In this document: positions 9,290 through 45,042 of the stretch, piece after piece
Layout: each line of letters opens with the position of its first letter
Position numbering within the stretch: the stretch's first letter is position 1
Virus record (IMG/VR): IMGVR_UViG_3300043434_001104
Coordinates: 1 to 45,185 of that record
DNA from: a virus
Reading direction: 5' to 3' (one strand)
DNA: 45,185 nt
Notes under the pieces: generated by a model
Databases searched by the model: none
What the model saw: the letters and a program-made list of their open reading frames with translations, nothing else
Told to the model about the DNA's origin: nothing
Made by a program: the position numbers and the translations under genes

Positions 9290-12200
9290 ATGCAAGCAAT
9301 TCAATTACCAGTAACTCAAGTAGGTTTAGAGCAAAGTATTCAAGCCGCAATGAAGCGAGCTAGTGGATCTGCTCAAATCAATCTTGGAACAAATTCACGA
9401 CAAATTAACGCTTTGTCCCAACCCTTGGGTAGAATTACTGGTCAAGCTGATGAGTTCTCAAAATCTATGGCAGCAGCTAATGCTCGCGTTCTAGCATTCG
9501 GAGCTTCTGCTGGTATTATCGCTGGAGTATCTAAGGCGATGTCTGGATTGGTAACAAGCACCATCAAGGTGGAAAAAAGTCTTGTAGAAATAAATGCCGT
9601 ATTAAACAAAAGTGGCAGCGAATTAGATAAATTTGGACAGCAGATTTTTAATACAGCAAAAAATACAGGTAAATCTTTTGAAGAAGTTGCCAGCGGCGCA
9701 TTAGAGTTGGCTCGTCAAGGTTTGAGTGCAGAAGATACTATTAACAGATTGAACGATGCTCTTATTCTTTCTAGACTTTCAGGATTGGATGCAGCTCAAT
9801 CTGTTGAAGGTTTAACTGCCGCATTTAACTCTTTTAAAAAATCTGGTATTACAACCGCAGAGATTTTGAACAAAGTTGTTGCTGTTTCTCAAAAATATGC
9901 AGTATCGGAAAGAGATATTATTGAAGGTGTAAAACGCTCTGCTTCAGTTGCTCAACAAGCTGGAGTTTCATTTGAAGAGTTGGCGGCAGTTATTACGGCA
10001 GTTCAGCAGACTACTGCCAGAGGTGGCGCTGTTATCGGTAACAGTTTTAAAACTATTTTCGCGAGAATCCAAAGAAAAGATGTTCTTTCTGATTTGAAAG
10101 GCATGGGTATAGCAGTTGAAGATCTTCAGGGAAATGTATTACCAGCATTAAGAATTTTAGAAAATCTTGCAGCTAAATTAAATAACTTTTCTCAAATTGA
10201 ACAGGCGAGTATTGCCGAAAAACTTGGTGGTGTTTTCCAGTTAGATAAATTATTGGCAGCACTTAAAGATCTTTCTTCTGAAGCTTCGGTAACTTCTGGA
10301 GCTTTAGAGGTGATGGGAAAAGCTGGAAATTCAGCGTATCAGAAAAATGTCGTCTTAAATCAAACTCTCGCTGCTTTATTGAATAAAGTTGCCGTAAGTG
10401 CTGAACAACTTGGCGCAAAACTTGGTGAAATTGGCGTAACAGACAGCTTAAAGAATGTCTTGGGATTTTTTAATGGTCTGCTAGAAGGCATTCAAAAAGT
10501 TTTGGGAGAAGAAAGTGGACTTGGTACTATGGTTCGTGGACTTGTTAAGGGTCTTGGAAATTTCTTGGGTGGTCCAGGTTTGGCTATTTTTGGTGCTATT
10601 ATTCTTAAACTTTCTAAGGATTTGGTGCAGTTTGGATTTGCCAGCTTGAAAACATTCTTTGGAATTGGCAAGGCAGCGCAAGAAGTAAAAAGTGTCGAAA
10701 CAGCAATCTCTCAAATCCTAGCTAAAAACGTAAACTTGCAACAGCAGTTGTTTGCGCTAGAAGGCAATAGAGCTGCTCAATTAAAAGTAATTACTGGAGC
10801 ATTGGTTGAGCAAGAAGCGCTTCTTCGTAGAAGTGCTAATATTTCCTCTGGATTGGCAAAACCTCTTTACAATGTTGGGGTTAGAGCAGGTGGTTCTGGA
10901 TTGCGCGTTGGCAATAGTGCTGATGGCTATATGCCAGCAGTCGCAAAAGAAAGTAAAGCGATCAAACAAGGAGTTGGTGGCGCTCGCGCAGGTGATAAGC
11001 CTGTTGTGATTCCAAACTTTAATTTTGGCGGCGGCAAAAAGGGAACGATGGTTGCACACACTGGTGAGTATGTTGTGCCTAATTTCAATGGAAGTGGCGG
11101 CTCTGCTGTGTTTAATAGACAAATGGTGCAGTCAATGGGATTGCCATCAGGAGCAAAGAAAATTAATGCGGCTGGAGGATTCGTTCCAAATTTTGCAATA
11201 AAAGGGCTAGCTGCAAAAGATTTTGACAAAGAGGGTGGAGGAGAATATAAAATATTAGCTGGGAGAATTTTTGAATCTTTGTTGCGGGGAGAAAATTATA
11301 TAGATTTGACAGAAAATGTAGTTGGACCAGATATAGATAAGGGTAAATTTAAAATTAAAGAAGCTAAAATATCTGGAAAAGCAGCATGGAGAGATCCAAA
11401 TTTTGGCACTGGCAAGCCAAAGGGATCTAATTTGATTTTGCCAAAAACAGCAACTGATGATTTCGATAAAAAATTGATTTTAGAAAAAGGAGCAGATATT
11501 TTTAGATCTCAAATTACTCATCAAAAACTTTTTGGAATTGCAAGAAAAATTATAGCTAGGGAAAGTGTTAAACCAGTGACTAATTTATCACGTATTGAAT
11601 TAGCATCTAACGGTTTTATTCCAAACTTTGCTCCAAAATTCAATGCAGAAACCGTTAGAAAATACGCTGACGAAATTGAAAAATACAAACACCCAACAAA
11701 AGATTTCTACGAATTCCCAGATGGAACTGGTGGTTATGGATCTCAGATAAAAAATGTCTTATCAAGACAACAATCAAAAGCTGTTGCCAATAAGATAATC
11801 AAAGAGAAAAAAATAGAAGATAAGGGATTTTATAATTTAAATGCTGATGAGCTTGGCGGTATTCTTTTAGTTTCTCCTAGATTTGGCAAAAGCCAAGGAT
11901 CATTGGATACTTCGATGCAGATTGGCGAAATTCCATACTTCAATCAAGATAAATCTCCGCCTATTGATAAAAATAAATATATCAAATTAGCTGGCATTAA
12001 AACATCTAATACGCCAAGTGGTAGAGATTTGAAATCTTTAAGAGCGGATGTTAATGAATTATTTTCTGATGGAATTGTAAAACTTGCATATAGATTATAT
12101 GGTGAAACTTTTGACCCTGCAAGCGGAGGAGAGTTTTCTGCAAAACTACAATCTCTAGATGCTTCCAAAAAAGAACAATTGTTACCTCCTGCTGCACAAG

Positions 12201-15200
12201 GAGATTTATTCGAAGCTGCTGGAAAAGTAGCTCTAAATAGTTTTGCGAATTTAGAATCTTTGTTTGGTTCTGGCGAACAAAATAGACCGTTTGATTTCCA
12301 AAATCCAGAAGCATTGCGTAAAGTATTTGGCGTAAATGCCAAAAGAGGTGAAGCCAAGAGAGGAGGAGAGAAAAACTTTAGCTCTTCCAAGCAAGTTCAA
12401 GGAATAATCAAAAAAATATTCAATGATTCAGAGTATGGACAAAGCGCAGTTCAATCCCTGAAGAATCAAGGAGCGTTTAATTTTTCTAAGGCACAAAAGG
12501 CAGCGCAAGCGAAAAATGCTTTTGGAGGTTTTATTCCCAATTTTGCTCAAACGGGCCAGCTTATTGGCAGTGGGCAAGAAAGCGATGTGTTTAGAAAGGG
12601 CAATAGAGTAATTAAATATTCAAAAGGCGACGAAAGACAAGCGTCAGAAAAAGCACAGTTGAATAAAGCGATGAACTGGGCGGCTGCTAAAAACCAGCTG
12701 AATAATATTTATAAAGATGGAAAATTGAGAATTCTTCAAACTTTCCAAAGACAAGGTTTTTCTGTGCAAGCATTTGCTGGAGAAACGGGGGCAACAGTTA
12801 TTAAAGATAAATTAAAAGCATTTAAATTATCAGATTTGATTGATAGAAAATTTGAAGAAGCGAGAAATCGTAATACACAAGAACCAGACTGGCTAGCTCC
12901 ATTGTTTTTTGATCCTGATCCACGTAATTTTACTTTTTTAAATGGTGTAAAAGGAGATATTAATAGAGCATCTGTAGAGGAAATATTTAACGCTAATAAA
13001 TTTGGTCTTATTGATATGGGAGTTTATCCTTTGAGATTGCCTGATATAAAGAAAAGAGCTGCTGGCGGCTTCCTTCCCAACTTCGCCAATCCACTCCAAG
13101 CAGCAGTAGGTCGCGAAATGGCTGCTGGTGTTCCTGCTTCACAAATTTATATTGATAAGAGTCCTGCGTTGAAGAATGCGGCAAACCCTATGGGTTTGAT
13201 GGTTGCCAATCGTCGTGACGAACCCGCTGGTGGATTCCAAGGTATTAATCGCGCCAGAAGAGAAGGAGCTAATCCAATGACGTATGGTGCTGCTGGTGGG
13301 TTTGTGCCTAATTATGTCGCCGCAGTTCCAGCTCAACACCAAGCGGCAGCGTATGGTAGACCAGCAGCTTCTTCTACTGCAAATGATAAAGCAGCATCAG
13401 GTGCTGGAAAAACCCTTGTAGCTTTAGTTGCTTTCCAAAGCGCTGTTTCTGTTTTGTCTGGATTTTTAGAACAAGCGGGAGACGGCGGGAAAAAATTAGC
13501 AGAAACTCTTCAAAAGGTAGCGACAACTGCTTTGATTTTTGGAGGTATTGCTTTTAGCGATCCAATCAAAAAATTAAAAGAGTTCGCTGATGAGCTTGAA
13601 AAAACAAGAAAAGCAGCTAGAGATTCAGCAACAGATGGCTATTACAAAGGATATAGAAGCGGAAGAGCTGGAGAATCAACTGACAAGTTAAACCTCATGG
13701 GAAAAATAGGTGGCGGTGTTGGCCGTGGGGTAACATTTGCTAGAGACACAGCTTCAAATGCTTATGGTTTTGTTCGCAATAAAGCAGCTGGAGCGGCAAC
13801 TGCGTTTGCTAGCACCAACATTGGAGGAAAAGTTATTGGTTTCGGTCGAGGAGTAGGAAATTTCGGTCGAGGAGTAGGAGCTGTCGGTGGTTTTGTTGGT
13901 CGAGGAATAGGAGCTGCTGGCGTTGCTGCTGGTGGTCTTCTTGGACCCATAACTCTTGCTGTTGGCGGATTTAAAGCTGTTGGTGAAGCTCTTAGTGGTT
14001 TTAGAACTTTTTCAAATTCAGCCGCAAAATCATTAGGAGAAATGTCTGTATATGCTGCCAAGGCATCTGAATCTTTGTCTGAATTAGATAAAACCGCTAT
14101 AGAGGCAGAAACTAACAGAAGATATGGAGTAACAGGGGGTACTCTGTTAGGTTCAATTGCTGACATAACTGGAGCTTCAGCTATAGCCTCTGGAATTACT
14201 GGACGACAAATATCTAATACTAGTTATCGAGGACGAAATGTTGAGCTATCAAATGTATCAGAAGATACATTTAAGCAAATTGAAAAAGCCTTTATTGCTT
14301 CATACGTTGGAGCTAATAGGACTAAGTTTGCAACAGCAGAAGATGCTGCTGGCGTAGCAGCAGCGGAATTTTCTAAGAAATTCGCAGATGGTTTTGATGA
14401 ATTCGATGCAGAATATATTAAAAATGATATTAAAGAATTAAGCGAAGAAGCTCAAAGATTTAGAAAAGATAATGCTGTAGCAGAAGCGCTAAAACAAGCA
14501 AAAATACAATCTGAATTAGCAGCAAGAGACGTAATTAATTTTAATAATGTTCTAGGAGATAGCGCAAATAAGATTATTCAATTAAAAGCAAAAGTATTTG
14601 AACTAAAAAGTTCTAATGAAATATTCAAGGCTCTGTCAGAAGCTGGCACTGAAAATGCTATTAATTTGTCAGAATTTCAAAAAGTTGCCCAAAAACTTGG
14701 AACAACCTTGCAATCTTTAGATGCTTCAAAAGCAGTTCAGGAATTAGATTTATTCACAAAAACAACTGAAAATATAGATAATATTGTAAGAACGAATCTT
14801 AAAGATTTAACTGTCCAAGATGTAGGTTTAGGTGAAGTATACTCGAAGATTAAAACCGATATTCTTTCTGGTGATTTAGAGAGAATAAATGCAGTAATTG
14901 CCAATCCCGCTAAAGCAAGCGATCTTATTAGATTATTTGGTCAAGATTATAGAACCGTTTTGCAAGATCTAACTAAAGAGTATGCTAATCAAACAGTAGA
15001 AATAAAAAACCAATTAAAAGAGGCTCAAAACAATGCCAATATAGAAGCATACCGATCAGCACTAGCACAACAAACAACATCTGCGCTTGAGAATCAAACC
15101 AAACAACTTGATTTGCAAAAATTAAGTTTTGAAAAAATGTCAGAGTATGCTGACAAAATTAGAGCATCGACAAGTAAAATTTCCGATTTAAATTTCGAAA

Positions 15201-17905
15201 AAGGTTTAATAGGTGCAACTCAAAGACAAAGACTATCAGCTCAAATTTCTAGAAGACCAGAGCTAGAGGCCAGAGCTAGAAAAGAATCTTTAAGGAATTT
15301 TCAAAAGGATAGAATTAGTTCGGTGCAGTCTTTGGAGAGTTTAATACCATCTACATTGAGTTCAGAGTTGCAGTTTAGTTTAAAGACTGGTATTTTAGAA
15401 GCCACAAAAAGCATTAGAAAGCAAAATACTTTAGATAAAGTTGCTGAAGAAGCTAATAAAAGATATGCGGAAACCGTTCAAGAAATAAATAAAGCCGTTA
15501 AAGAAGAAACGACAGAAAGAAGCCGTTTTATTGATCAAATACAAGATTCTTTGACTAATGGGAGCATTAAATTTGAAAGTTCGGTAGTTGGAGCAGCTCA
15601 AGAATTTGCTAGAATAATAAAAGCATCAAGTCTGGCTCCAAAAGAGGTGGAATTAAAAGATTTGCAATCTAAAAAAGCAGAAGCTCAAAAAGACCTTGAA
15701 TCAAGAAATGTAGCGATAGAAAAATATTTGTCAGACAGAGATAAATATATAAAGAAATTTGAAAAAGGAAATCCTGGTCAAAAAAGTCTTATGCGGGATC
15801 TGCCATTTGAAAATGATTCAGAGTATTTAAAATTGACTGGCAATTTGGATAAATCACAGCAATCTTTTTTAGACTTAAATACTGCAATTGCAGAATTAGA
15901 AAAAAGGATAAAAGAATTTGTTCCAACGCCAACATTTATGCCTTCTAGTGTGATTCCACCGCTTCTAAAAAGAAAATTGGAAACTCCCGAAACCAAACCT
16001 CTGCCGACCAGTCCACCAGAAGGAACGGAAGATCCTCTTGAAGCAGCTAGATTGGAAGAAAAAGCTTCTCTACTTGAGATCGCCAATACAACTGAAAACG
16101 CAGCCGATGAATTGCAAAAACTTACTAGCGTCTCAAGAATACTAGCCGATGAGTTCATGCAGCTAAAAGATGGTATACCTGCTGCCATCGCTGCAATTAT
16201 ATCACAAAGAAATAAATCAATCTCTGGAGCAGAAATTCTTGGCGCTAACTATGATTTAGAAACAAATAGACAGTTAGCTGGTGCAAAAACACAAGAAGAG
16301 TATGAAAAAATCACAAGAGACCGTCAAAACAAAGGCATTGGACAACTCTTCGCCGAAGAATATGGTAAAACACCAGAAGAACAAGCTTTAGACTTGAAGA
16401 AAACCATCGTAGATGGTTCTGTTCAATTCAAAAACAATATGATCGAAGCAATTATGGGCGCTGCCGAAGGCACATCTAGTCTCAAAGATGGCTTGCGTTC
16501 TGCTGCTTACGAATTCGTAAAAATGATCAACCAAAAAATGATGAGCAACTTGGTTGACAAGCTCGTCGGTGGAAATGTTCAGAGCGGAACAGGTCAAACT
16601 AGTGGTGGATTAATTAATTTCTTCTCCAACATGTTTGCTTCTGGCGGCAAAGTAACTGGCGGTTCTGGCACTAAAGACGATGTTCCTGCAATGCTTATGG
16701 GCGGCGAATATGTCGTGAATAAGAGAGCTGTAGCAAAGTATGGCCCACAATTCCTAGAAGCCATCAACAATGGCACGCTCGCTGGATATGCTAAAGGTGG
16801 AACTGTGCAAAGAGGTCCTCAAGGAAACTTCTATACTCCAGGAACTTTTGGTCAAGGAGCTATCAGCGGTAAAAGAAACCTTTTGGATTTCGCAACCCAA
16901 AGCGGCACAACTGGTAAATATGATCAAATGGTAAATGAATCGGGCTTTCAAGCTATTCGCTTGGAACCAGAAAGCAATCGTTTGAGCTTTTCTGGCATGA
17001 GAAACTCGCCTATGTTCGAAGTTACTCAGTCAGCAAAACAACAAGCTTTTGATTTGTATCTCCAACAATATAACGCTGAACAAGAAGCTCGTAGACAATC
17101 TAAAGCGCAGAAAAAAGCTTTGACAAATCAGTTGCTGATGCTCGCTGGATCTGTCGCTTTAGGTGGACTTGGCAAAGTGGCAATGACTGGAGGAAAAGCC
17201 GCTCTTGGCTCACTTGGATCAAATGCTACACTTGGACAAAAAGCAATGGCATTCCTCAAAGGAGCGTGGAGTGGTGGAAATGTTGCTGGAACAAATCAAA
17301 TGGCTGGTGGATTAAAAAATCTATTTACTGGTAATTTTAATACTGCTTTTAGATCTGGCACGGTATTGAAAGCTATTGGGCTTGATGATGGATTGCAAAT
17401 AAAAAGTAGAATTCTAATGCCAGATAGAAATTCAATGTATAAAAATATATATCCTATTCCTACTGGCGATGGAGCAGACACAGAGGCATTTAATATGCTA
17501 ATAGGTGAGCGTTATGCTACTGGCGGCATGATTCCATCTACTTCTGGTATCGACACTGTTCCAGCTATGCTTTCTGGTGGAGAGTTTATCATGAATAGAG
17601 CAGCGGTTCAAAACATTGGCGCAGGTAATCTTCGCTCGATGAACTCTGGAGCTGCATCTGTCACTTCAGAAGAAACAAGCAAAGATTTGAATGCCCAACT
17701 TATCGCTAAACTCGACGAACTGATTCAAGTTTCGGGGTCAAGTGGCGACATCAACATCAATGTTTCTTCTTCTGGTGATTCAAGAGAACAATCCTCAACT
17801 CAAGATGGATCGTCGCAAAGACAACAATTGGCGAGACAAATCCGCGATGCTGTGTTGCAAGTCATTCAAGAAGAAAAACGCATAGGAGGCACTCTAAGAA
17901 GATAA
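9290..17905 (+). CDS. Giant tail tape measure protein with embedded cassette domains
   Basis: A 2,871-residue tape measure protein that sets tail length (about 430 nm at ~1.5 angstrom per residue, if all residues span the tail) and is usually ejected with the DNA. Residues ~85-370 match the phage tail tape measure domain (hallmark RGGAVIGNSFKTIFARIQ). Hydrophobic segments lie at ~425-455 and ~1540-1570. Residues ~570-1340 contain repeated (G)GFxPNFA-type motifs that separate inserted domains: two with PD-(D/E)XK-like residues and one kinase-like. Residues ~1620-2250 are largely coiled coil. GEYVVN-type tape measure motifs occur at ~592, ~2472 and ~2764. The C-terminus is Ser/Gln-rich. The next gene starts 1 nt after the stop. 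The inserted enzymatic-looking domains are unusual for a pure ruler. Confidence 0.92.
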   Translation: MQAIQLPVTQVGLEQSIQAAMKRASGSAQINLGTNSRQINALSQPLGRITGQADEFSKSMAAANARVLAFGASAGIIAGVSKAMSGLVTSTIKVEKSLVEINAVLNKSGSELDKFGQQIFNTAKNTGKSFEEVASGALELARQGLSAEDTINRLNDALILSRLSGLDAAQSVEGLTAAFNSFKKSGITTAEILNKVVAVSQKYAVSERDIIEGVKRSASVAQQAGVSFEELAAVITAVQQTTARGGAVIGNSFKTIFARIQRKDVLSDLKGMGIAVEDLQGNVLPALRILENLAAKLNNFSQIEQASIAEKLGGVFQLDKLLAALKDLSSEASVTSGALEVMGKAGNSAYQKNVVLNQTLAALLNKVAVSAEQLGAKLGEIGVTDSLKNVLGFFNGLLEGIQKVLGEESGLGTMVRGLVKGLGNFLGGPGLAIFGAIILKLSKDLVQFGFASLKTFFGIGKAAQEVKSVETAISQILAKNVNLQQQLFALEGNRAAQLKVITGALVEQEALLRRSANISSGLAKPLYNVGVRAGGSGLRVGNSADGYMPAVAKESKAIKQGVGGARAGDKPVVIPNFNFGGGKKGTMVAHTGEYVVPNFNGSGGSAVFNRQMVQSMGLPSGAKKINAAGGFVPNFAIKGLAAKDFDKEGGGEYKILAGRIFESLLRGENYIDLTENVVGPDIDKGKFKIKEAKISGKAAWRDPNFGTGKPKGSNLILPKTATDDFDKKLILEKGADIFRSQITHQKLFGIARKIIARESVKPVTNLSRIELASNGFIPNFAPKFNAETVRKYADEIEKYKHPTKDFYEFPDGTGGYGSQIKNVLSRQQSKAVANKIIKEKKIEDKGFYNLNADELGGILLVSPRFGKSQGSLDTSMQIGEIPYFNQDKSPPIDKNKYIKLAGIKTSNTPSGRDLKSLRADVNELFSDGIVKLAYRLYGETFDPASGGEFSAKLQSLDASKKEQLLPPAAQGDLFEAAGKVALNSFANLESLFGSGEQNRPFDFQNPEALRKVFGVNAKRGEAKRGGEKNFSSSKQVQGIIKKIFNDSEYGQSAVQSLKNQGAFNFSKAQKAAQAKNAFGGFIPNFAQTGQLIGSGQESDVFRKGNRVIKYSKGDERQASEKAQLNKAMNWAAAKNQLNNIYKDGKLRILQTFQRQGFSVQAFAGETGATVIKDKLKAFKLSDLIDRKFEEARNRNTQEPDWLAPLFFDPDPRNFTFLNGVKGDINRASVEEIFNANKFGLIDMGVYPLRLPDIKKRAAGGFLPNFANPLQAAVGREMAAGVPASQIYIDKSPALKNAANPMGLMVANRRDEPAGGFQGINRARREGANPMTYGAAGGFVPNYVAAVPAQHQAAAYGRPAASSTANDKAASGAGKTLVALVAFQSAVSVLSGFLEQAGDGGKKLAETLQKVATTALIFGGIAFSDPIKKLKEFADELEKTRKAARDSATDGYYKGYRSGRAGESTDKLNLMGKIGGGVGRGVTFARDTASNAYGFVRNKAAGAATAFASTNIGGKVIGFGRGVGNFGRGVGAVGGFVGRGIGAAGVAAGGLLGPITLAVGGFKAVGEALSGFRTFSNSAAKSLGEMSVYAAKASESLSELDKTAIEAETNRRYGVTGGTLLGSIADITGASAIASGITGRQISNTSYRGRNVELSNVSEDTFKQIEKAFIASYVGANRTKFATAEDAAGVAAAEFSKKFADGFDEFDAEYIKNDIKELSEEAQRFRKDNAVAEALKQAKIQSELAARDVINFNNVLGDSANKIIQLKAKVFELKSSNEIFKALSEAGTENAINLSEFQKVAQKLGTTLQSLDASKAVQELDLFTKTTENIDNIVRTNLKDLTVQDVGLGEVYSKIKTDILSGDLERINAVIANPAKASDLIRLFGQDYRTVLQDLTKEYANQTVEIKNQLKEAQNNANIEAYRSALAQQTTSALENQTKQLDLQKLSFEKMSEYADKIRASTSKISDLNFEKGLIGATQRQRLSAQISRRPELEARARKESLRNFQKDRISSVQSLESLIPSTLSSELQFSLKTGILEATKSIRKQNTLDKVAEEANKRYAETVQEINKAVKEETTERSRFIDQIQDSLTNGSIKFESSVVGAAQEFARIIKASSLAPKEVELKDLQSKKAEAQKDLESRNVAIEKYLSDRDKYIKKFEKGNPGQKSLMRDLPFENDSEYLKLTGNLDKSQQSFLDLNTAIAELEKRIKEFVPTPTFMPSSVIPPLLKRKLETPETKPLPTSPPEGTEDPLEAARLEEKASLLEIANTTENAADELQKLTSVSRILADEFMQLKDGIPAAIAAIISQRNKSISGAEILGANYDLETNRQLAGAKTQEEYEKITRDRQNKGIGQLFAEEYGKTPEEQALDLKKTIVDGSVQFKNNMIEAIMGAAEGTSSLKDGLRSAAYEFVKMINQKMMSNLVDKLVGGNVQSGTGQTSGGLINFFSNMFASGGKVTGGSGTKDDVPAMLMGGEYVVNKRAVAKYGPQFLEAINNGTLAGYAKGGTVQRGPQGNFYTPGTFGQGAISGKRNLLDFATQSGTTGKYDQMVNESGFQAIRLEPESNRLSFSGMRNSPMFEVTQSAKQQAFDLYLQQYNAEQEARRQSKAQKKALTNQLLMLAGSVALGGLGKVAMTGGKAALGSLGSNATLGQKAMAFLKGAWSGGNVAGTNQMAGGLKNLFTGNFNTAFRSGTVLKAIGLDDGLQIKSRILMPDRNSMYKNIYPIPTGDGADTEAFNMLIGERYATGGMIPSTSGIDTVPAMLSGGEFIMNRAAVQNIGAGNLRSMNSGAASVTSEETSKDLNAQLIAKLDELIQVSGSSGDININVSSSGDSREQSSTQDGSSQRQQLARQIRDAVLQVIQEEKRIGGTLRR
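11198..11611 (+). other. Tape measure inserted domain 1, PD-(D/E)XK nuclease-like
   Basis: Residues ~637-774 lie between two PNFA motifs. They contain GRIFESLL (E662), GPDID (D681) and KEAK (E691, K693), in the order and spacing (E, PD, x9, ExK) of PD-(D/E)XK nuclease folds. Seen: the residues. Inferred: the fold and activity. Confidence 0.45.
11633..12523 (+). other. Tape measure inserted domain 2, PD-(D/E)XK nuclease-like
   Basis: Residues ~782-1078 lie between PNFA motifs. They contain GDLFEAAG (E975), RPFDF (D1002) and GEAK (E1021, K1023), again an E, D, ExK order with 18 residues between D and E. The ~190 residues before this are of no recognised family. Fold and activity are inferred. 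Confidence 0.4.
12548..13057 (+). other. Tape measure inserted domain 3, protein-kinase-like
   Basis: Residues ~1087-1256 show, in order, a glycine-rich loop IGSGQESDVF (G1093, G1095, V1100), the VxK lysine (VIK, K1109), a catalytic-loop-like FDPDPRNF (D1208-x4-N1213) and a DFG-like IDMG (D1242). These are the core residues of kinase-fold phosphotransferases. The classical H of HRD is replaced by F. The domain is short (~170 residues), like minimal kinase domains in phage polyvalent proteins. Confidence 0.6.
13841..13882 (+). repeat. Tandem 21-bp repeat inside the tape measure gene
   Basis: Two copies of a 21-nt unit beginning TTCGGTCGAGGAGTAGGA (13841 and 13862), encoding FGRGVGN then FGRGVGA, within a glycine-rich hydrophobic segment. 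A third looser copy (GGTCGAGGAATAGGAGC) follows. This suggests recent local duplication. Confidence 0.8.
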
Positions 17906-26647: not shown

Positions 26648-28300
26648 ATGACAAGAGAAAAATACTACTGGTTAAATGAAGACTCCATTAAGTTTTTGGA
26701 GCAAGGTTATCTTAGCGAAGGGCAATCTCCTATCGCAAGAATTCAAGAAATCGCTAATGCAGCTCAAAATATTCTCGGCATCGAAGGATTCGCTGACAAA
26801 TTTATTGACTACATGTCTCGCGGTTTTTACAGCCTATCCACTCCAGTGTGGATGAATTTCGGCAACGATAGAGGCAATCCAATTTCTTGCTTTAATAGCC
26901 ATGTCTCTGACAGCATTGAAGCATTTTTAACAAAGCAAGCTGAAGTTGGAATGATGACCAAAGTTGGCGGAGGTACTTCTGGTTATTTTGGTGACATTCG
27001 CCCAAGGGGTTCGAAAATTTCTACAGGCGGTATTGCAGAAGGAGCCGTTCGCTGCATGGAGCTATTTGATAACGTAGCAAAGATCATTAGCCAAGGAAGC
27101 GCACGCAGAGGCAGTTTTGCGGCGTATCTACCCATTGATCATGATGACTTTGATGAGTTTATGAAGATTCGCTCTGAAGGTCACTCTATTCAGGAGATGT
27201 CTATCGCTGTCACAATTCCTGAAGGGTGGATGCAATCAATGATTGATGGCGACAAAGAGAAAAGACGTAGATGGGCTTCGGTAATTAAAAAGCGTTCTGA
27301 AACTGGTTATCCATACGTATTCTTCACAGATAACGCCAACAACCAAGCTCCTCAAGTTTATAAAGACAAGGGATATAAGATCAATGCGAGTAACCTTTGC
27401 TCTGAGATTTTTCTACCATCAACTAAAGACGAGTCGTTTGTTTGTTGCTTGTCTTCTTTGAATTTGCTTTGGTGGGATGAGATTGAAAAGACTGATGCTG
27501 TTGAAACAATGGTGATGTTCTTGGATGCTGTTATGACAGAATTTATCGAGAAGACTAAAGGTAATCGTCTGATGGAAGCTGCTCATAATTTTGCAAAAAA
27601 TCATAGAGCATTGGGTATGGGAGTTCTTGGATATCACAACTACCTGCAATCAAAAATGATTGCATGGGAAAGCATGGACGCGCATTTTGAGAATATCTCA
27701 ATTTTTTCAGAAATCAGAAAACGTGCTGACAATACATCAGAAAAACTCGCAGCAATGTTTGGTGAACCAGAAGTATTAAAAGGTTATGGTCGTCGCAATA
27801 CTACAACTATTGCTATTGCACCCACTACGAGTTCCAGCTTTATTCTTGGTCAGGTGAGTCCTAGCATTGAGCCTCTCAACAGCAACTACTTCGTTAAGAA
27901 TCTTGCCAAAGGTCAATTTACTTACCGCAATCCAAAACTTGAAGAAGTTCTGAAATCCAAAGGTAGAGATGATAAAGAAACTTGGAAGAGTATTCTACTC
28001 CACGGTGGTAGTGTTCAACATCTCGATTTTCTCACAGAACATGAGAAAGATGTTTTCAAAACATTTGCAGAACTCTCTCAAAAAGAAGTTGTGATCCATG
28101 CTGCTCAACGGCAACCATATATTGATCAGGGGCAATCTCTCAATCTCATGATTCCTGCTGGCACAAAACCAAAAGAAATCAATGAGTTGATGATCTTTGC
28201 GTGGGAGCAAGGCATTAAATCTTTGTATTACCAAAGAAGTTCCAATCCATCTCAAGATCTAGCTCGATCAATTTTAACATGCTCTAGTTGCGAAAGTTGA
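26648..28300 (+). CDS. nrdA: Ribonucleotide reductase large subunit, class I, no ATP cone
   Basis: A 550-residue catalytic subunit. Active site features: SCFNSHV (first redox Cys), NLCSEI (N, radical Cys, E), FVCCLSSLNL (second redox Cys area), SLYYQRS (Tyr pair of radical transfer) and a C-terminal CSSCES (CxxC that passes electrons from thioredoxin or glutaredoxin). The protein begins close to the catalytic barrel, so the N-terminal ATP cone that mediates dATP inhibition is missing; full-length cellular enzymes are ~750 residues. Loss of the cone would keep dNTP synthesis active. Cotranscribed with the small subunit. Confidence 0.95.
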   Translation: MTREKYYWLNEDSIKFLEQGYLSEGQSPIARIQEIANAAQNILGIEGFADKFIDYMSRGFYSLSTPVWMNFGNDRGNPISCFNSHVSDSIEAFLTKQAEVGMMTKVGGGTSGYFGDIRPRGSKISTGGIAEGAVRCMELFDNVAKIISQGSARRGSFAAYLPIDHDDFDEFMKIRSEGHSIQEMSIAVTIPEGWMQSMIDGDKEKRRRWASVIKKRSETGYPYVFFTDNANNQAPQVYKDKGYKINASNLCSEIFLPSTKDESFVCCLSSLNLLWWDEIEKTDAVETMVMFLDAVMTEFIEKTKGNRLMEAAHNFAKNHRALGMGVLGYHNYLQSKMIAWESMDAHFENISIFSEIRKRADNTSEKLAAMFGEPEVLKGYGRRNTTTIAIAPTTSSSFILGQVSPSIEPLNSNYFVKNLAKGQFTYRNPKLEEVLKSKGRDDKETWKSILLHGGSVQHLDFLTEHEKDVFKTFAELSQKEVVIHAAQRQPYIDQGQSLNLMIPAGTKPKEINELMIFAWEQGIKSLYYQRSSNPSQDLARSILTCSSCES

Positions 28301-35167: not shown

Positions 35168-35198
35168 TTGACAAATCAAAACAGCTCTCTAATATCAA
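35168..35198 (+). promoter_or_regulatory. Promoter-like sequence abutting the helicase start
   Basis: TTGACA (35168-35173) with either a 17-bp spacer to AATATC (ends 7 nt before ATG) or 19 bp to TATCAA (ends 5 nt before the ATG at 35204). The -10 is not perfect, so this is a moderate candidate. Confidence 0.4.
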
Positions 35199-35203
35199 TC
35201 CAG

Positions 35204-36712
35204 ATGATTTACAACCTAGAACTAGAAAAACAACTATTGGCAGCTCTAATCAAAGAGCCTGAAAGTTATTGCGAAATCTCAAACTTTATTAGTCACAAGG
35301 ATTTTTACAGCGAAGATTCAAGCCTTCATAGTTCCATTTTCACTGTCATCAAACAAGCTATTGATGCTGGCGATCAAATTGACGAAGTTATTGTCGCGCA
35401 AAGAGTTTCTTCTCTTGGTCTATCTTTCGAGGACAGACTTAATCCTGCTGATTATATTCGATCTCTTGCAATGCGCAAAGTGCCAAAAGGCAACCTAATC
35501 AAAACAGCTAAAGAACTCAAAAAATTTACTATCCGTAGAGAGATTTACGAGTCTGCTCAAGAGATTGCGCGTAAGATGAAGTCTATTGCTCCTGATGCAA
35601 GCTACAGCCAAATCATTGGATCGGCAGATGACTCTTACAATTCTCGCATCAATCTTTATGAGATTGGCAATGACGTTCCAGAAAATATCTACGATGAAAT
35701 GGAGGCTCTGATTGAAGAGCGTGGTAATAATCCTATTACCGAATTTGGAATGATGGGGCCTCATGAAAAAATCAATGAAATCTACGGATCGCTGTTGAGA
35801 CCTGGGAATATTACTGTTATTGTCGCTCGATCAGGCGTAGGAAAAACTCAGTGGTGCATGGATTACTCTACAAAAGTTTCAATGAAATACGATGTTCCAG
35901 TTCTTCACTTTGACAATGGAGAGATGAGCAAAGAAGAGTTGATCATGCGTCAATGCGCAGCTATTTCTGGAGTTCCAATGCATTTGCTTGAAACAGGAAA
36001 TTGGAGAAAGGCTGGCGCAGATGTAGTCGCAAAAGTTCGCGCTACTTGGCCAAAGGTCAAGAATTTAAAATTCTTTTATTACAATGTTGGCGGCATGGAT
36101 GTTGATTCTATGTTGAAAGTTCTCAAGCGATTTTACTATGGAAAAATTGGTCGTGGAAATCAAATGATCTTTTCTTTCGACTATATCAAAACAACATCAG
36201 AATCTGGTGGCGGCAAGAATGAGTGGCAAGTTGTTGGAGAAATGGTAGACAAGTTTAAGAAATGTATTCAAAAAGAAATTCTACACGAAGGTCTTCCTAT
36301 CATTCCAATGATCACGTCTGTTCAATCGAACAGAAGCGGTATTACAAACAATCGTCAATCGGCAAACATTATTGACGATGAAAGTATTGTTTCGTTGTCT
36401 GACCGTATTACGCAATTTTGTTCGCACATGTTTATTCTTCGCAATAAAACTGCTGACGAAATTGAAACAGAGGGTCGCAATTTTGGCACTCATAAACTGG
36501 TCAATGTTAAAGCTCGACATCTTGGCAAAGATATTGCTGGTGCTGTAGAACCTGTGAGGATTGGAGATAATTTGCGCAAGAACTTTATTAACCTTGAATT
36601 CAACAACTTCTGCATTACAGAACGAGGCGATCTTCGTGATATTGCTCGCGTTGCAGAAGGACAAATGGATCTAGAAGACGATGAATCAGACGACTTGCCA
36701 AGCTTCAATTAA
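35204..36712 (+). CDS. DnaB-like replicative helicase
   Basis: A 502-residue helicase from the ATG at 35204 (an in-frame TTG at 35168 belongs to a promoter). The N-terminal ~110 residues (LELEKQLLAALIKEPESYCE) are the helical DnaB N-domain. The C-terminal RecA-like motor has the Walker A ARSGVGKTQW, HFDNGEMSKEELIMRQ (motif 1a), FSFDYIKT (Walker B) and DRITQFCSHMFILRN with RHLGKD (arginine/sensor region). It should unwind DNA at the phage fork, with the primase gene overlapping it by 32 nt. Confidence 0.92.
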   Translation: MIYNLELEKQLLAALIKEPESYCEISNFISHKDFYSEDSSLHSSIFTVIKQAIDAGDQIDEVIVAQRVSSLGLSFEDRLNPADYIRSLAMRKVPKGNLIKTAKELKKFTIRREIYESAQEIARKMKSIAPDASYSQIIGSADDSYNSRINLYEIGNDVPENIYDEMEALIEERGNNPITEFGMMGPHEKINEIYGSLLRPGNITVIVARSGVGKTQWCMDYSTKVSMKYDVPVLHFDNGEMSKEELIMRQCAAISGVPMHLLETGNWRKAGADVVAKVRATWPKVKNLKFFYYNVGGMDVDSMLKVLKRFYYGKIGRGNQMIFSFDYIKTTSESGGGKNEWQVVGEMVDKFKKCIQKEILHEGLPIIPMITSVQSNRSGITNNRQSANIIDDESIVSLSDRITQFCSHMFILRNKTADEIETEGRNFGTHKLVNVKARHLGKDIAGAVEPVRIGDNLRKNFINLEFNNFCITERGDLRDIARVAEGQMDLEDDESDDLPSFN

Positions 36713-39564: not shown

Positions 39565-40190
39565 ACGACCTACTAAGATTTAAGAAAGATCAGAACTACA
39601 TTGTTTTTGATACGGAAACAGAAGGATTGAACTTGGTATACTCTAGACCTTGGCAAGCTTCTTGGGTTATTTGTCGCGGCAACAATATCATCTCTAAACA
39701 CGATCACTTTATTCGCTGGGACAATATCAACGTATCTCCTGATGCTGCCAGAATTACAGGCTTCAACAAGGAGAATTACTACAGAAAAGCAGAAGACCCA
39801 AAAGAAGTTTTCCTAAAACTAAATAAGTACTTAAGCGATCCTTCTTTTCTTGTGATTGGACAAAATCTGCTTGGTTTCGACGTTTACATGGTCAACATTT
39901 GGCGCAAACTTCTTGGTATGAATAGCGACTACTCCTATATCAATAGGATTATTGATACAAAATCAATCTCAACTGCCATCTTCAAACAGATTCTCCCCGA
40001 TAAGGAAAATTTTCTATCTTGGCAATATAAGATGCTGCATATTCGCGAGAAAGGTCTAAAAACAAACCAAGCATTCATGCTTAAATACTACGACATTCCG
40101 CACGATCCAAAACGCCTACACGATAGTCTCTACGATGTAGAGATGACTTTCGAAATCTTCAAAAAACAAATCTTTAATATTGACCTATGA
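39561..40190 (+). CDS. DEDDh 3'-5' exonuclease (proofreading)
   Basis: A 209-residue exonuclease. Motif I FDTETEGL (D and E), motif II VIGQNLLGFDVYM (D) and motif III HDSLYDVEMTFE (H and D) are all present, as in PolIII epsilon and PolC exonucleases. It should remove misincorporated nucleotides for the adjacent polymerase subunit. It starts with ATGA overlap on the PHP gene and ends with ATGA overlap on the polymerase gene, so all three are likely translated in fixed ratio. Confidence 0.9.
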   Translation: MNDLLRFKKDQNYIVFDTETEGLNLVYSRPWQASWVICRGNNIISKHDHFIRWDNINVSPDAARITGFNKENYYRKAEDPKEVFLKLNKYLSDPSFLVIGQNLLGFDVYMVNIWRKLLGMNSDYSYINRIIDTKSISTAIFKQILPDKENFLSWQYKMLHIREKGLKTNQAFMLKYYDIPHDPKRLHDSLYDVEMTFEIFKKQIFNIDL

Positions 40191-42745
40191 TTGAACAATT
40201 CTCACATTACGAATCCCCATTTCCAGCAGGGGTAAAACTTCCTAAAATCCAAATCGAAAAGCGTTATTACCAACAGCTTGGTATTTCTGATGATATTTCA
40301 AATTTTGAATTTTTGCGCCGCATTTGCTTCGAGGGAGTAAAGAAGCGTGGTATTCTTGAATATCCAAACAAAGAAAAATACTTTGAGAGGCTCAAGATGG
40401 AGCTTTCTATTTTTGAGGAGTTAGGTTTTATTGATTATGTTTTGCTGAATTGGGACATCATCAACTTCTGCCATGAAACTGGTATTCCTACGGGCGCAGG
40501 TAGAGGCTCAGCACCTGGAAGTTTGGTGCTATACGCTATTGGCGTAACTAACATCGACCCAATCAAACACGATTTATTCTTCGAACGATTTGTATCTAAA
40601 AGTCGCGCTCGCAAAATTGAACATAACGGAGAAATCTTTTTAGATGGATCTTTGCTGTGCGATGTTGATAACGACATTAGCTACGACAGACGACAAGAAG
40701 TGCTAGATTACATCAATAAAAAATACGCTGGCAAAACGTCCAAAATTCTCACGCTGAATACTTTGAGTGGCAAACTCTGCATCAAAGAGTGCGGAAAGGT
40801 CGTTAGCGAAATGTCAGAGTCTGAAGTGAATATCGTCAGCGATAGCATTCCTAAAAAATTTGGCAAAGTAGCTAAATTGGAAGTAGCCTATCAAGAAAGC
40901 GAAGCTTTCAAAGAGTTTGCGAATAACAACAAGAAAGTTTATCGCATTGCCAAAAAACTCGAAGGCTTGAATAAAAATGTCGGCGTTCATCCATCTGGAA
41001 TCGCTATTAGCTATTACCCTTTGGAAGAAGTGATGCCCGTGCAAAACACTGGAGAAGAGGCTTTGGTTTCTGGATACGACATGAACAATGTCGCAGAATT
41101 GATGGTTAAGTTCGATATTCTTGGTCTGCGCACGTTATCTGTTGTCAATGATGTTTGCAAGCAGATTGGCTTGAATGCTCACGATATTGATGTTGAGCAT
41201 CCATCTATTTATGCAGCGCTGCAAACTCTTCAAGCTCCCAAAGGACTCTTCCAGATCGAGGCTGATACAAACTTCAAAGTAGCTCAGAAAGTTGCACCTC
41301 AAAATCTAGAGCAGCTTTCTGCTGTGGTGGCTATTGCAAGACCTGGGGCATTAGACTTCTTGGATAAGTATGCAGAATACGTGAGAACAGGAGAGTCGCA
41401 ATCTATTCACCCGTTCTTTGACGATGTATTGTCCTATACTGGTAACATTCCTTTGTTTCAAGAGCAGTTGATGAAGATGGCTGTAAAAGTAGGATTCAAC
41501 CTAGACGAAGCTGAACAGCTCCGTCGAATCGTCGGCAAGAAAAAAGTCGATAAGATGGCAGAATGGAAAGATAAGATCTCTCAAAAAATCAAAGAGAATA
41601 ATCTTGATCCAGTAATCGGCGATGTGCTATGGAAAGTCGCAGAAGACTCCGCAAACTATTCGTTCAATAAGTCTCACTCGATGGCTTACGCTTATCTTGC
41701 AGCAACTACTGTTTATCTGAAATTCAACTATCCTCAGCAGTTCTTTTTGAGCCTACTAAAATTCGCGCAGTTCGAGCCTAATTCTCACGAAGAAATCCTC
41801 AAAATCTCTCAAGAGCTTTCTTCATTTGGCATCAAGCTGCTTCCGCCAAGCCTCACGAAATCTGAAATTGATTTTTCTATTGAAGGCAGTGACATTCGTT
41901 ATGGCTTGAATACAATCAAAGGAGTATCCACCAAATCGCTGGAAGCATTGCTTGAATTTCGCGAGGGAGCATTCCCAAACAAGTATGAGGTGTTCATGGC
42001 AGCAAAACAAGCTGGAGTAAATATCGGATTGGTATCTGCTTTGATTCAAGCTGGTCTATTAGATAGTTTTGTCGAAAAAGATCGCTGCCGTTTGGTATTA
42101 GAGGCTCAAACATTTAACGTGTTAACAGAAAGAGAAAAAAGAAACTTGGTAGCGCTCGGAGAAAAATACAATTACAATCTTTTGGAAAGCATTAACGATT
42201 GCGTTAAAAACCAATTGGTTGGAGACGATAACAAACCAATCTTCTCTGCAAAAAGATTCGAAACATTCAAAACAAAATATCAACCCTACCGACAAATCTA
42301 CGATCAAAATAAAAAACACATTAAATATGCAAATTGGTTCTTTGAAAGCAAGCTGCTTGGCTACAGTTATTCGCAAAACATTCGCGAAGTCTTTAAAGAT
42401 GCGAGCCAGTCTCACTTCGTATCTTCTCAAGATCTTCATTCTGTTGATAACAATACCACTGTTTGCTCTGTTGGTTTTGTCGTGGACTCTATCTCTAGGA
42501 CTAGCGCTAGCGGCAATAAGTATGCTCGTATTGACATTGCTGATGAGCGGGGCAATATATCAATGCTACTTATGGACAATTCGAGAGAAGCTAAACTCAC
42601 AAGTTTTCTCAACTCTGGTAAAAAAATTCCTAAAAAAGGAGAAGTCGTGATTGGTATTGGTCAAAAAAATAACGACATTATTATGCTTGACAAGCTCGTT
42701 CTTTTAGAGGATAAAATTTACATGAAGCTCTCTGAGCTGAAGTAA
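40187..42745 (+). CDS. PolIII alpha polymerase core
   Basis: An 852-residue C-family polymerase lacking its own PHP domain. GAGRGSAPGSLVLYAIGVTN then DPIKHDLFFERF is the hallmark palm region; DSLLCDVDND carries catalytic D159 and D161; KFDILGLRTLSVV has the third Asp. KGLFQIEADTN, IARPGALDFLDKY and SFNKSHSMAYA are further conserved palm/fingers motifs. The C-terminus includes an OB fold (VGFVVDSISRTSASGNKYAR then IDIADERGN). E. coli DnaE is 1,160 residues, the difference being the missing PHP and part of the tail. The phage carries its own replicative polymerase. Confidence 0.93.
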   Translation: MIEQFSHYESPFPAGVKLPKIQIEKRYYQQLGISDDISNFEFLRRICFEGVKKRGILEYPNKEKYFERLKMELSIFEELGFIDYVLLNWDIINFCHETGIPTGAGRGSAPGSLVLYAIGVTNIDPIKHDLFFERFVSKSRARKIEHNGEIFLDGSLLCDVDNDISYDRRQEVLDYINKKYAGKTSKILTLNTLSGKLCIKECGKVVSEMSESEVNIVSDSIPKKFGKVAKLEVAYQESEAFKEFANNNKKVYRIAKKLEGLNKNVGVHPSGIAISYYPLEEVMPVQNTGEEALVSGYDMNNVAELMVKFDILGLRTLSVVNDVCKQIGLNAHDIDVEHPSIYAALQTLQAPKGLFQIEADTNFKVAQKVAPQNLEQLSAVVAIARPGALDFLDKYAEYVRTGESQSIHPFFDDVLSYTGNIPLFQEQLMKMAVKVGFNLDEAEQLRRIVGKKKVDKMAEWKDKISQKIKENNLDPVIGDVLWKVAEDSANYSFNKSHSMAYAYLAATTVYLKFNYPQQFFLSLLKFAQFEPNSHEEILKISQELSSFGIKLLPPSLTKSEIDFSIEGSDIRYGLNTIKGVSTKSLEALLEFREGAFPNKYEVFMAAKQAGVNIGLVSALIQAGLLDSFVEKDRCRLVLEAQTFNVLTEREKRNLVALGEKYNYNLLESINDCVKNQLVGDDNKPIFSAKRFETFKTKYQPYRQIYDQNKKHIKYANWFFESKLLGYSYSQNIREVFKDASQSHFVSSQDLHSVDNNTTVCSVGFVVDSISRTSASGNKYARIDIADERGNISMLLMDNSREAKLTSFLNSGKKIPKKGEVVIGIGQKNNDIIMLDKLVLLEDKIYMKLSELK

Positions 42746-42759: not shown

Positions 42760-45042
42760 ATGATGGACTTAGACAAAAAAAATTGGACATTCCGAGCTTT
42801 AGAATCTTGGCAGCAAGTTACTAAGTTTGCTGCTTCTAAAAACCACAAAATGACGAACATCTATCATTTGTTTGTTTGTCTATGGGAAAACAGCAACGAA
42901 TCCTTTATTGAGTTTTTAAACAGTAAAGGTATAGAGATTTCAGACAAGGTTATTTCTTTAAGCTTTAATAAATTTGTTAAGAAATATCCAGAGTATTTTC
43001 TTACTCTTGAAATGGATGATATTGTTGAAGCTGAAATTCATAAATGCGTAGCAAATGCAACAGCTCTAGCTCACCAACAAGACAATCTTTTTATTGGAAC
43101 TGAGCATTTTATTTGGAGCGTATTGGAGACTTCCGAGAAGTTTTCAGAAATTCTTTTGCAAAACAATATTGACACAGAATATCTGAAAAAATGCATTAAA
43201 AAATTTCTTAAAAATCCAGACCTACAATTTTCTGATCCATCGAAGCTTCTTGAAGATGGTATTTTGGAAGAAGAAGACGCAGAGGAAATGGCTCAACTTT
43301 CAGAATCTCAAATCGAGCGTTTTTGCACTTCGCTTAACGAAGCGGTTCAGAAACCTGAATTTGGGATCATCTCTGGAAGAGATAAAGAAATCAACAGTCT
43401 TGAAGAAATTCTGTCGTGCAAAGTTAAGAGCAATTGCATTTTGATTGGTGAAGCTGGCACAGGAAAAACATCGGTAGTAGAGGGTCTTGCTCAGATTCTT
43501 TCTACACCAAAGTATAACGGTCCTCTAAAAAACAAAACAATCTATTCTCTTGATGTCGGAGCCTTGATTGCTGGAAGTAAATATCGTGGGCAATTTGAAG
43601 TGAGGTTCAACAAACTAATTTCGGAACTAAAAGAAGATGAAGATGCTATTTTGTTTATTGACGAAATCCATACTATTATTGGAGCTGGTGGCAAAGAAGG
43701 CTCTCCAGATTTGGCTAACCTGCTTAAACCAGCTTTGGCTCGCGGAGAAATCAAATGCATTGGAGCTACCACTTCTTCAGAATACAAAAAATACTTTGAA
43801 AAAGATCCAGCGCTCACAAGAAGATTTCATCCTCTTGACATCAAAGAGCCAGATGTAGAGCAGATGAAAGAAATTGCGGCGAAAGCTTGCCCATCGTATG
43901 AAAAGTATCATGGAGTGAAATTCTCCAAAAAGCTTTTGAATTTATCTATCGAAATGTGCGAAACTTATCTTCCACACAAAAAATTCATCGACAAAGCTTT
44001 TGATGTAATTGATCGAACTTTTGCAAAGGCAAAAATGAGAACTTCTCAAGAAGAATCAACAGATAAAGCTGTACGAGTTGATGATCTTCTTTATGTTGTT
44101 TCAGAATTGTCGGGAGTGAGCTTTGAAGTCTTAGAAAAAAATCTAAACAAAAAATTCTCTGATATTCCAGAGAACTTCAAAAAAGAAATCTTTGGACAAG
44201 ACAAAGCCGTCGATAAAATTTACAACTGTCTTGCTTGTGCAAAGGCTGGACTCAATTCTCCAGACCGCCCACTCTCAAGCTTCTTGTTTGTTGGTCCAAC
44301 AAGCACAGGAAAAACTCATACCGCCAAAAAGATAGCGAAAGAGTTTTTTGGCAATGATCAAAGTTATCTGCAAATTAATATGAGCGAGTATCAAGACCCC
44401 GTGTCAGTTTCTCGATTAATTGGTGCGAGTGCTGGATATGTTGGTTTCGACGAGGGAGGAGTTCTCACTGAATTTGTTCGTAAAAACCCAAACAGTCTTA
44501 TTTTGTTTGACGAGATTGAAAAAGGAAGCTTTTCAGTATTGAATCTATTGCTTCAAATTCTAGACGAAGGTAAACTTAGAGATTCTTTTGGAAGAGACAT
44601 TGACTTCAAAAAAACCATCATTGTATTGACTAGCAATATTGGCGCACAAGAGGCAGCTAAGCCGTTTATGGGCTTTATATCTAATTCAAATGATTCTAAT
44701 CAAACATTTTTGAGTTCACTCAACCAAGCGCTATCTCCAGAAATGAGATCTCGCATTGATGAGATTGTTGTATTTGAGAAAATGAATGAAGAGTCACTAG
44801 AAAAACTGTTCAATCAATATCTCCAAGATTTATTGCAGAAAGCAGAAAAAAAAGGAATTAAAATTAACTGTGAACTCTCCATCCGCGATTTGGCAAGTGA
44901 TTTTAGAAACATGCACGCTCGCGAAATTAAAAATCTTCTTCGCAATAAGATTCAAACTCCGCTGGCTCATAAGATCGCTTCGGGCAAAAAAATCAACAAA
45001 TTGACAATAAAAGTTGTTGACAAAGAAGTTATTCTAGTTTAG
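42760..45042 (+). CDS. ClpA/ClpC-like AAA+ unfoldase
   Basis: A 760-residue double-ring unfoldase. N-terminal Clp N-domain repeats (about 1-160; for example LFIGTEHFIWSVL). D1: Walker A GEAGTGKTS (230-238) and Walker B ILFIDEIHT; D2: Walker A GPTSTGKTHT (from 512), Walker B LILFDEIEK. There is no inserted coiled-coil M domain, so it is ClpA-type rather than ClpB. The D2 loop contains MGF (637-639) where ClpA/ClpX/ClpC carry their IGL/IGF-type ClpP-docking tripeptide. Two start ATGs (42760, 42763) exist; the second is 6 nt from TAATAA. It could hijack host ClpP or remodel phage complexes. Confidence 0.9.
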   Translation: MMDLDKKNWTFRALESWQQVTKFAASKNHKMTNIYHLFVCLWENSNESFIEFLNSKGIEISDKVISLSFNKFVKKYPEYFLTLEMDDIVEAEIHKCVANATALAHQQDNLFIGTEHFIWSVLETSEKFSEILLQNNIDTEYLKKCIKKFLKNPDLQFSDPSKLLEDGILEEEDAEEMAQLSESQIERFCTSLNEAVQKPEFGIISGRDKEINSLEEILSCKVKSNCILIGEAGTGKTSVVEGLAQILSTPKYNGPLKNKTIYSLDVGALIAGSKYRGQFEVRFNKLISELKEDEDAILFIDEIHTIIGAGGKEGSPDLANLLKPALARGEIKCIGATTSSEYKKYFEKDPALTRRFHPLDIKEPDVEQMKEIAAKACPSYEKYHGVKFSKKLLNLSIEMCETYLPHKKFIDKAFDVIDRTFAKAKMRTSQEESTDKAVRVDDLLYVVSELSGVSFEVLEKNLNKKFSDIPENFKKEIFGQDKAVDKIYNCLACAKAGLNSPDRPLSSFLFVGPTSTGKTHTAKKIAKEFFGNDQSYLQINMSEYQDPVSVSRLIGASAGYVGFDEGGVLTEFVRKNPNSLILFDEIEKGSFSVLNLLLQILDEGKLRDSFGRDIDFKKTIIVLTSNIGAQEAAKPFMGFISNSNDSNQTFLSSLNQALSPEMRSRIDEIVVFEKMNEESLEKLFNQYLQDLLQKAEKKGIKINCELSIRDLASDFRNMHAREIKNLLRNKIQTPLAHKIASGKKINKLTIKVVDKEVILV

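What the first reader, a model, noticed from the sequence alone, without database searches (positions are those of the whole stretch)
12548..13057. Kinase-like domain embedded in a tape measure protein
Seen: G1093-x-G1095...V1100...K1109 (IGSGQESDVF, then VIK), D1208-x4-N1213 (FDPDPRNF) and D1242-M-G. These are the phosphate loop, VxK lysine, catalytic loop D..N and DFG positions of protein-kinase-fold enzymes. Known: phage polyvalent proteins carry minimal kinase domains delivered at infection. Inferred: this tape measure delivers a kinase-fold enzyme into the host.
Basis: partly seen in the sequence, partly recalled or inferred. Interest (0 to 1): 0.85.

Follow-up and report, generated by a model that had tools for sequence, protein, structure and literature searches.

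The report
Swappable enzyme cassettes in phage tape measure
The ruler protein that sets a phage's tail length, and is thought to be fired into the bacterium at infection, carries interchangeable enzyme-like modules (here a kinase-like and two nuclease-like ones) that related phages swap at a short repeated GFIPNFA motif.

Summary
The motif is real and exactly where described: TMP residues 1087-1256 (window 12548-13057) carry GxGxE...VxK...Q...D-x4-N...hhDxG in kinase order. The only sequence homologue found (L066, 28% identical, in another phage's TMP, same slot) keeps every catalytic position. Two further kinase-like families occupy cassettes of relatives; a model of one matches protein kinases only. 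The W domain's own fold is not proven: its AlphaFold model is poor and no Pfam kinase family hits.

The larger finding is that this domain is one of several cassettes set off by a recurrent motif, A-[AS]-x-G-[FY]-[IV]-P-N-[FY]-A. GF[IV]PNFA occurs 303 times in 283 motif-bearing ORFs and once in all other ORFs of the same contigs. Against three close relatives, DNA homology stops or resumes within 4 residues of a motif at 14 of 15 breakpoints, and the cassettes between differ completely. I found 493 distinct cassettes in 124 clusters: PD-(D/E)XK-like nucleases (commonest; two in this TMP), P-loop NTPases, GNAT, SNase, HExxH and kinase-like domains.

Best reading: a tape measure working as a modular multi-effector injection chassis, with polyvalent-protein logic. 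Cassette exchange is shown; delivery, activity and the linker's role are inferred.

The parts
9290..17905 (+). Tape measure protein (2871 aa), the chassis
   Evidence: PF10145 E 9.5e-32 at aa 122-314; PHROG TMPs; followed by minor-tail genes
11174..11197 (+). Linker motif 1, GGFVPNFA (aa 629-636)
   Evidence: DNA homology to L002, L003 and L204 ends at aa 637-639
11198..11602 (+). Cassette 1: PD-(D/E)XK nuclease-like (G658-R-I-F-E662, PDID 680-683, EAK 691-693)
   Evidence: pattern; absent from close relatives
11609..11632 (+). Linker motif 2, NGFIPNFA (aa 774-781)
   Evidence: homology resumes at aa 774-775 in L002 and L003
11633..12517 (+). Cassette 2: PD-(D/E)XK nuclease-like (GDLFE 971-975, D1002, EAK 1021-1023)
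   Evidence: 25-sequence alignment with only G, F, E, D, K invariant
12524..12547 (+). Linker motif 3, GGFIPNFA (aa 1079-1086)
   Evidence: homology to L002, L003 and L204 ends at aa 1086-1087
12548..13057 (+). Cassette 3: kinase-like domain (G1093, G1095, E1097, K1109, Q1160, D1208, N1213, D1242, G1244)
   Evidence: predicted b-b-b-a order of a kinase N-lobe, low confidence
13064..13087 (+). Linker motif 4, GGFLPNFA (aa 1259-1266)
   Evidence: homology resumes at aa 1255-1262
13088..13288 (+). Cassette 4: near-constant NPLQAAVGREMAAGVP domain, function unknown
   Evidence: 261 relatives in IMG/VR; 97%, 93% and 96% identical to L002, L003 and L204
13295..13318 (+). Linker motif 5, GGFVPNYV (aa 1336-1343)
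   Evidence: homology ends at aa 1343-1346

Best explanation
The segment is a minimal kinase-like enzyme domain, one of four cassettes at aa 629-1343 of a tape measure protein. Cassettes are set off by copies of a short linker, A-[AS]-x-G-[FY]-[IV]-P-N-[FY]-A, and are exchanged as whole units between related phages by recombination at or beside the linker (shown by sequence). The tape measure serves as a modular effector carrier: cassettes ride in the tail, are ejected with the protein at infection, and act in the host before phage genes are expressed, the kinase-like one by phosphorylating a host target and the nuclease-like ones by cutting host or rival nucleic acid (inferred). The linker marks the boundary and may be a hinge or a processing site (inferred).
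For: L066 homologue keeps G, G, E, K, Q, D, N, D and G at 28% identity and sits in the same slot before the NPLQ cassette. A second kinase-like family (6 distinct sequences, 9 contigs, all in TMPs) has invariant G-x-G, VKKF, E, D-x-HG-x-N and D-x-G, one computable pair with dN/dS 0.115, and a model whose top 50 Foldseek and VIA rows are all protein kinases. A third type is L271/L246. Homology breaks at motifs: 14 of 15 breakpoints against L002, L003 and L204 lie within 4 residues, with 87-97% protein identity on most flanks and no counterpart between. Motif 303 times in motif-bearing ORFs versus 1 elsewhere. Other cassettes: PD-(D/E)XK signature in 139 of 493, P-loop in 19; GNAT 7.7e-7 and SNase 3e-6; endonuclease 7.7e-8 and polynucleotide kinase 6.2e-6. 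Precedent that TMP-like proteins carry effector domains: Tme and Sle1 (PMC11126660, PMC13277306).
Against: The W kinase model is poor (pLDDT 45; no VIA match; Foldseek rows not significant). No Pfam or PDB sequence match; PF18762 does not hit. Only one homologue of this exact type exists in what was searched. W has no His or Arg before the catalytic Asp. The PD-(D/E)XK call rests on a residue pattern; a profile search of the PDB gave nothing convincing. No experiment shows ejection, folding or activity, and the host is unknown. TMP-bearing ORFs were selected by the motif itself, so the enrichment figure is partly circular for membership, though not for its rarity in other ORFs.
Confidence: 0.65

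Rival explanations
1. The cassettes are structural: variable spacer or folding modules that tune tail length or lumen packing, and enzyme-like signatures are vestigial or coincidental.
For: TMP length sets tail length in known phages (background knowledge; PMC5099701 abstract); cassettes differ in size; one near-constant cassette of unknown function.
Against: Catalytic residues are the only invariant positions among nuclease-like cassettes at 14-41% identity; kinase residues are conserved at 28% identity; dN/dS 0.115 in one kinase-like pair; several cassettes match enzyme families.
Confidence: 0.15
2. The TMP is a precursor: cassettes are cut out at the linker during virion assembly and act in the producing cell or enter the virion separately, so they are not injected as part of the TMP.
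For: The repeated short motif at every boundary resembles a processing site; DdrB of phage P1 is processed before packaging and HExxH peptidases are common in polyvalent proteins (PMC5512222); two distinct cassettes here carry HExxH.
Against: No protease specific to the motif was identified; HExxH cassettes are rare here.
Confidence: 0.2
3. The segment is an inactive kinase relative (pseudokinase) or another nucleotide-binding fold that uses the motif for binding only.
For: No His or Arg before the catalytic Asp; short domain; poor model.
Against: Lys, Asp, Asn and metal Asp are all kept in the homologue.
Confidence: 0.2

Closest known systems
Polyvalent proteins of phages and conjugative elements (Iyer et al. 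2017, PMC5512222), including Kinase-PolyVal (PF18762)
   Same: Several unrelated enzyme domains in one large protein thought to enter the host with the DNA; minimal kinase without a C-terminal subdomain, GxE near strand 2, Gln in the last N-lobe strand; kinase, GNAT, ADP-ribosyltransferase (ART) and HExxH domains in the repertoire.
   Different: Chassis here is a tape measure protein (the term 'tape' does not occur in that paper); cassettes set off by one short motif; PF18762 profile does not hit.
Tape-measure-related effectors of Streptomyces contractile injection systems: Tme (PMC11126660) and Sle1 (PMC13277306)
   Same: TMP-like protein loaded in a tail-like tube and carrying an effector domain that varies between species.
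   Different: Bacterial injection systems, one C-terminal effector domain; here infectious-phage TMPs with 1 to 8 or more internal cassettes and a recurrent linker.
Phage TMPs with embedded peptidoglycan hydrolases (background knowledge, not searched)
   Same: Enzyme domain inside a TMP.
   Different: Those act on the cell wall; predicted activities here are cytoplasmic.
Domain mosaicism of phage proteins (PMC10684548)
   Same: Recent exchange of domains within phage proteins.
   Different: That study saw a mosaic signal in TMPs but could not confirm genuine recent cases; clear ones are shown here.
T7-type ejection proteins (PMC8954989)
   Same: Ejected proteins with swappable enzymatic domain, refolding after passage.
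   Different: Podovirus internal core proteins; only a hydrolase domain is reported to swap.

Membership tests
Tape measure protein | TMP sequence family, longest ORF, next to minor-tail genes | tested here: met
Protein-kinase-like fold | Gly-rich loop, VxK Lys, catalytic Asp/Asn, metal Asp in order, conserved in homologues | tested here: met
Protein-kinase-like fold | Kinase fold of this segment by model | tested here: inconclusive
   pLDDT 45; N-lobe element order fits; no significant Foldseek or VIA match
Protein-kinase-like fold | Fold of the second cassette family (L002) | tested here: inconclusive
   pLDDT 62; top 50 rows all protein kinases but best E 6.7e-3 and Z 5.9, in the range where chance is possible
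Kinase-PolyVal (PF18762) | Match to the Pfam profile | tested here: not met
   no match at E 10
Kinase-PolyVal (PF18762) | GxE near strand 2, N-lobe Gln, loss of C-terminal subdomain | tested here: met
   hhalign places GxE..V..VIK on W at probability 23%, weak
PD-(D/E)XK nuclease (cassettes 1 and 2) | Invariant E, D and (E/D)xK residues | tested here: met
   cassette 2: only G, F, E, D, K invariant in 25 sequences; cassette 1: pattern only
PD-(D/E)XK nuclease (cassettes 1 and 2) | Nuclease fold or profile match | tested here: inconclusive
   no Pfam match; no convincing PDB profile match; not modelled
Polyvalent proteins | Delivery into the host with the DNA | not testable with these tools
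   inferred from TMP biology

The most novel reading that the evidence does not exclude
A widespread group of phages seen here only in metagenomic contigs uses the tape measure protein as a programmable multi-effector payload, with whole enzyme cassettes exchanged at a universal short linker that also serves as a processing or translocation signal.
Probability: 0.5. Interest if true: 0.92.

Novelty: new variant of a known kind. Interest (0 to 1): 0.78.

Why it matters
It would show that tape measure proteins can be effector carriers in infectious phages, linking polyvalent proteins with the TMP-derived effectors of bacterial injection systems. It supplies clear cases of recent TMP mosaicism that a systematic survey could not confirm (PMC10684548), and a sequence tag (GFIPNFA) by which unannotated early-acting phage enzymes can be found. 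The question of whether domains in the middle of a TMP reach the cytoplasm becomes directly testable.

Tried and rejected
Single-sequence search for the domain in viral contigs found no relative; the two-sequence profile A1 found only L066. tblastn of the kinase segment, of L066, of the NPLQ cassette and of L087 against isolated phages gave nothing credible, so no cultured representative was found in that collection. Pfam, NCBIfam and PADLOC scans of cassettes gave mostly weak hits, not used except those cited. PDB profile searches: none for the kinase, only lectin and hydrogenase chance matches for the nuclease set. VIA on the W model: no rows. hhalign between kinase families: weak, aligning only the Gly-rich loop region; MAFFT of W, L066 and L271 misplaced the L271 catalytic loop, so it was not used. 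Inteins or homing endonucleases were considered and set aside on general grounds (boundaries are GFIPNFA motifs, not splice-site residues); no specific test was run. Host assignment from DNA polymerase and Clp-like genes was uninformative. dN/dS failed for 14 of 15 pairs by saturation.

Full report
Observation. The window is a 45,185-base virus contig. Its largest ORF, 9290-17905 (+), 2871 aa, is a tape measure protein. The pattern is rare by chance (5 of 200,000 shuffles), and no Pfam family recognises the segment.

What surrounds it. Two close relatives of the TMP were found (L002, L003), and a third (L204) came with a later scan. Protein identity to these is 87-92% in the N-terminal 628 residues, 53-92% in cassette 2 and 93-97% in the NPLQ cassette, but cassettes 1 and 3 have no counterpart. 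At DNA level, homology ends or resumes within 4 residues of a motif at 14 of 15 breakpoints across L002, L003 and L204; the exception is at aa 841 in L204. This is whole-cassette replacement.

How general. A scan for AGGF[IV]PNFA found 90 stretches in IMG/VR, 89 of them in long ORFs with the motif in frame. The first motif lies near aa 630 in most ORFs whose N-terminus is held. The near-constant NPLQ cassette has 261 relatives. The same AGGF pattern found only 5 hits in 257 billion bases of genomes, near the number I estimate by chance, and two of these lie in long motif-bearing ORFs. In the collected loci GF[IV]PNFA occurs 303 times in 283 motif-bearing ORFs and once in all other ORFs; the consensus is A-[AS]-x-G-[FY]-[IV]-P-N-[FY]-A. 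Between motifs lie 493 distinct cassettes in 124 clusters.

What the cassettes are. In 25 diverse cassettes, including window cassette 2, the only invariant positions are G, F, E, D and K in the arrangement G-x-x-F-E...D...[ED]-x-K, the PD-(D/E)XK nuclease pattern; 139 of 493 distinct cassettes carry the pattern, 19 a P-loop and 2 HExxH. Profile matches include GNAT and SNase, endonuclease and polynucleotide kinase. ART-like and HAD-like cassettes were seen by eye only.

The kinase-like cassette. L066 holds a homologue, 28% identical, in a TMP and directly before its NPLQ cassette; Gly, Gly, Glu, Lys, Gln, Asp, Asn, Asp and Gly of the active-site pattern are identical. A second family of six distinct sequences, all in TMP cassettes, has its own complete pattern, and a third is in L271 and L246. 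The W model is of low confidence but shows strands and helices in the order of a kinase N-lobe; it gave no significant structural match. The model of the second family (pLDDT 62, pTM 0.59) lists only protein kinases in its first 50 rows, led by PRPK, ULK1 and RIO2, at modest scores. Like polyvalent-protein kinases described in PMC5512222, the W domain ends shortly after the metal-binding Asp, has GxE before strand 2 and a Gln in the last N-lobe strand; PF18762 itself does not match.

Mechanism. Shown: motif-delimited cassettes, their exchange, and conserved catalytic patterns. From established biology: TMPs sit in the tail tube and leave the virion during infection (described in PMC13277306 and PMC11126660). 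Inferred: cassettes are ejected with the TMP, refold in the host and act before phage genes are expressed; the linker is a hinge or processing site and its conserved coding sequence may guide recombination.

Limits. TMP-bearing ORFs were gathered through the motif or the NPLQ cassette, so frequencies describe this family, not TMPs at large. Only open-access literature was searched (nine searches), so prior description in subscription journals or preprints cannot be excluded. Activity, delivery and host remain untested.

Noticed in passing
L087 aa 591-1588 (and L021, L089, L172, L271): Tape measure ORFs with seven to ten motif copies under a loose pattern; L087 holds GNAT, HExxH and HAD-like stretches in successive cassettes.
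   Followed up: partly
L092 aa 159-235 and 947-1023: Two copies of the NPLQ cassette in one tape measure, suggesting duplication of a cassette block.
   Followed up: no
L048, L079, L105, L136 and others, first cassette: P-loop cassettes (GPAGSGKST) preceded by VYDSD, in 19 distinct cassettes; NTPase or polynucleotide-kinase-like.
   Followed up: partly
L284 aa 403 onward; L014 aa 631-846: Cassettes resembling ADP-ribosyltransferases by eye (YYHGTS..., LYRGM...); not confirmed by any profile.
   Followed up: no
window 26648-28300, 35168-36712, 40187-42745, 42760-45042: Ribonucleotide reductase, DnaB-like helicase, DNA polymerase and Clp-like ATPase genes (PHROG matches); fits a lytic phage of uncertain host.
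   Followed up: partly
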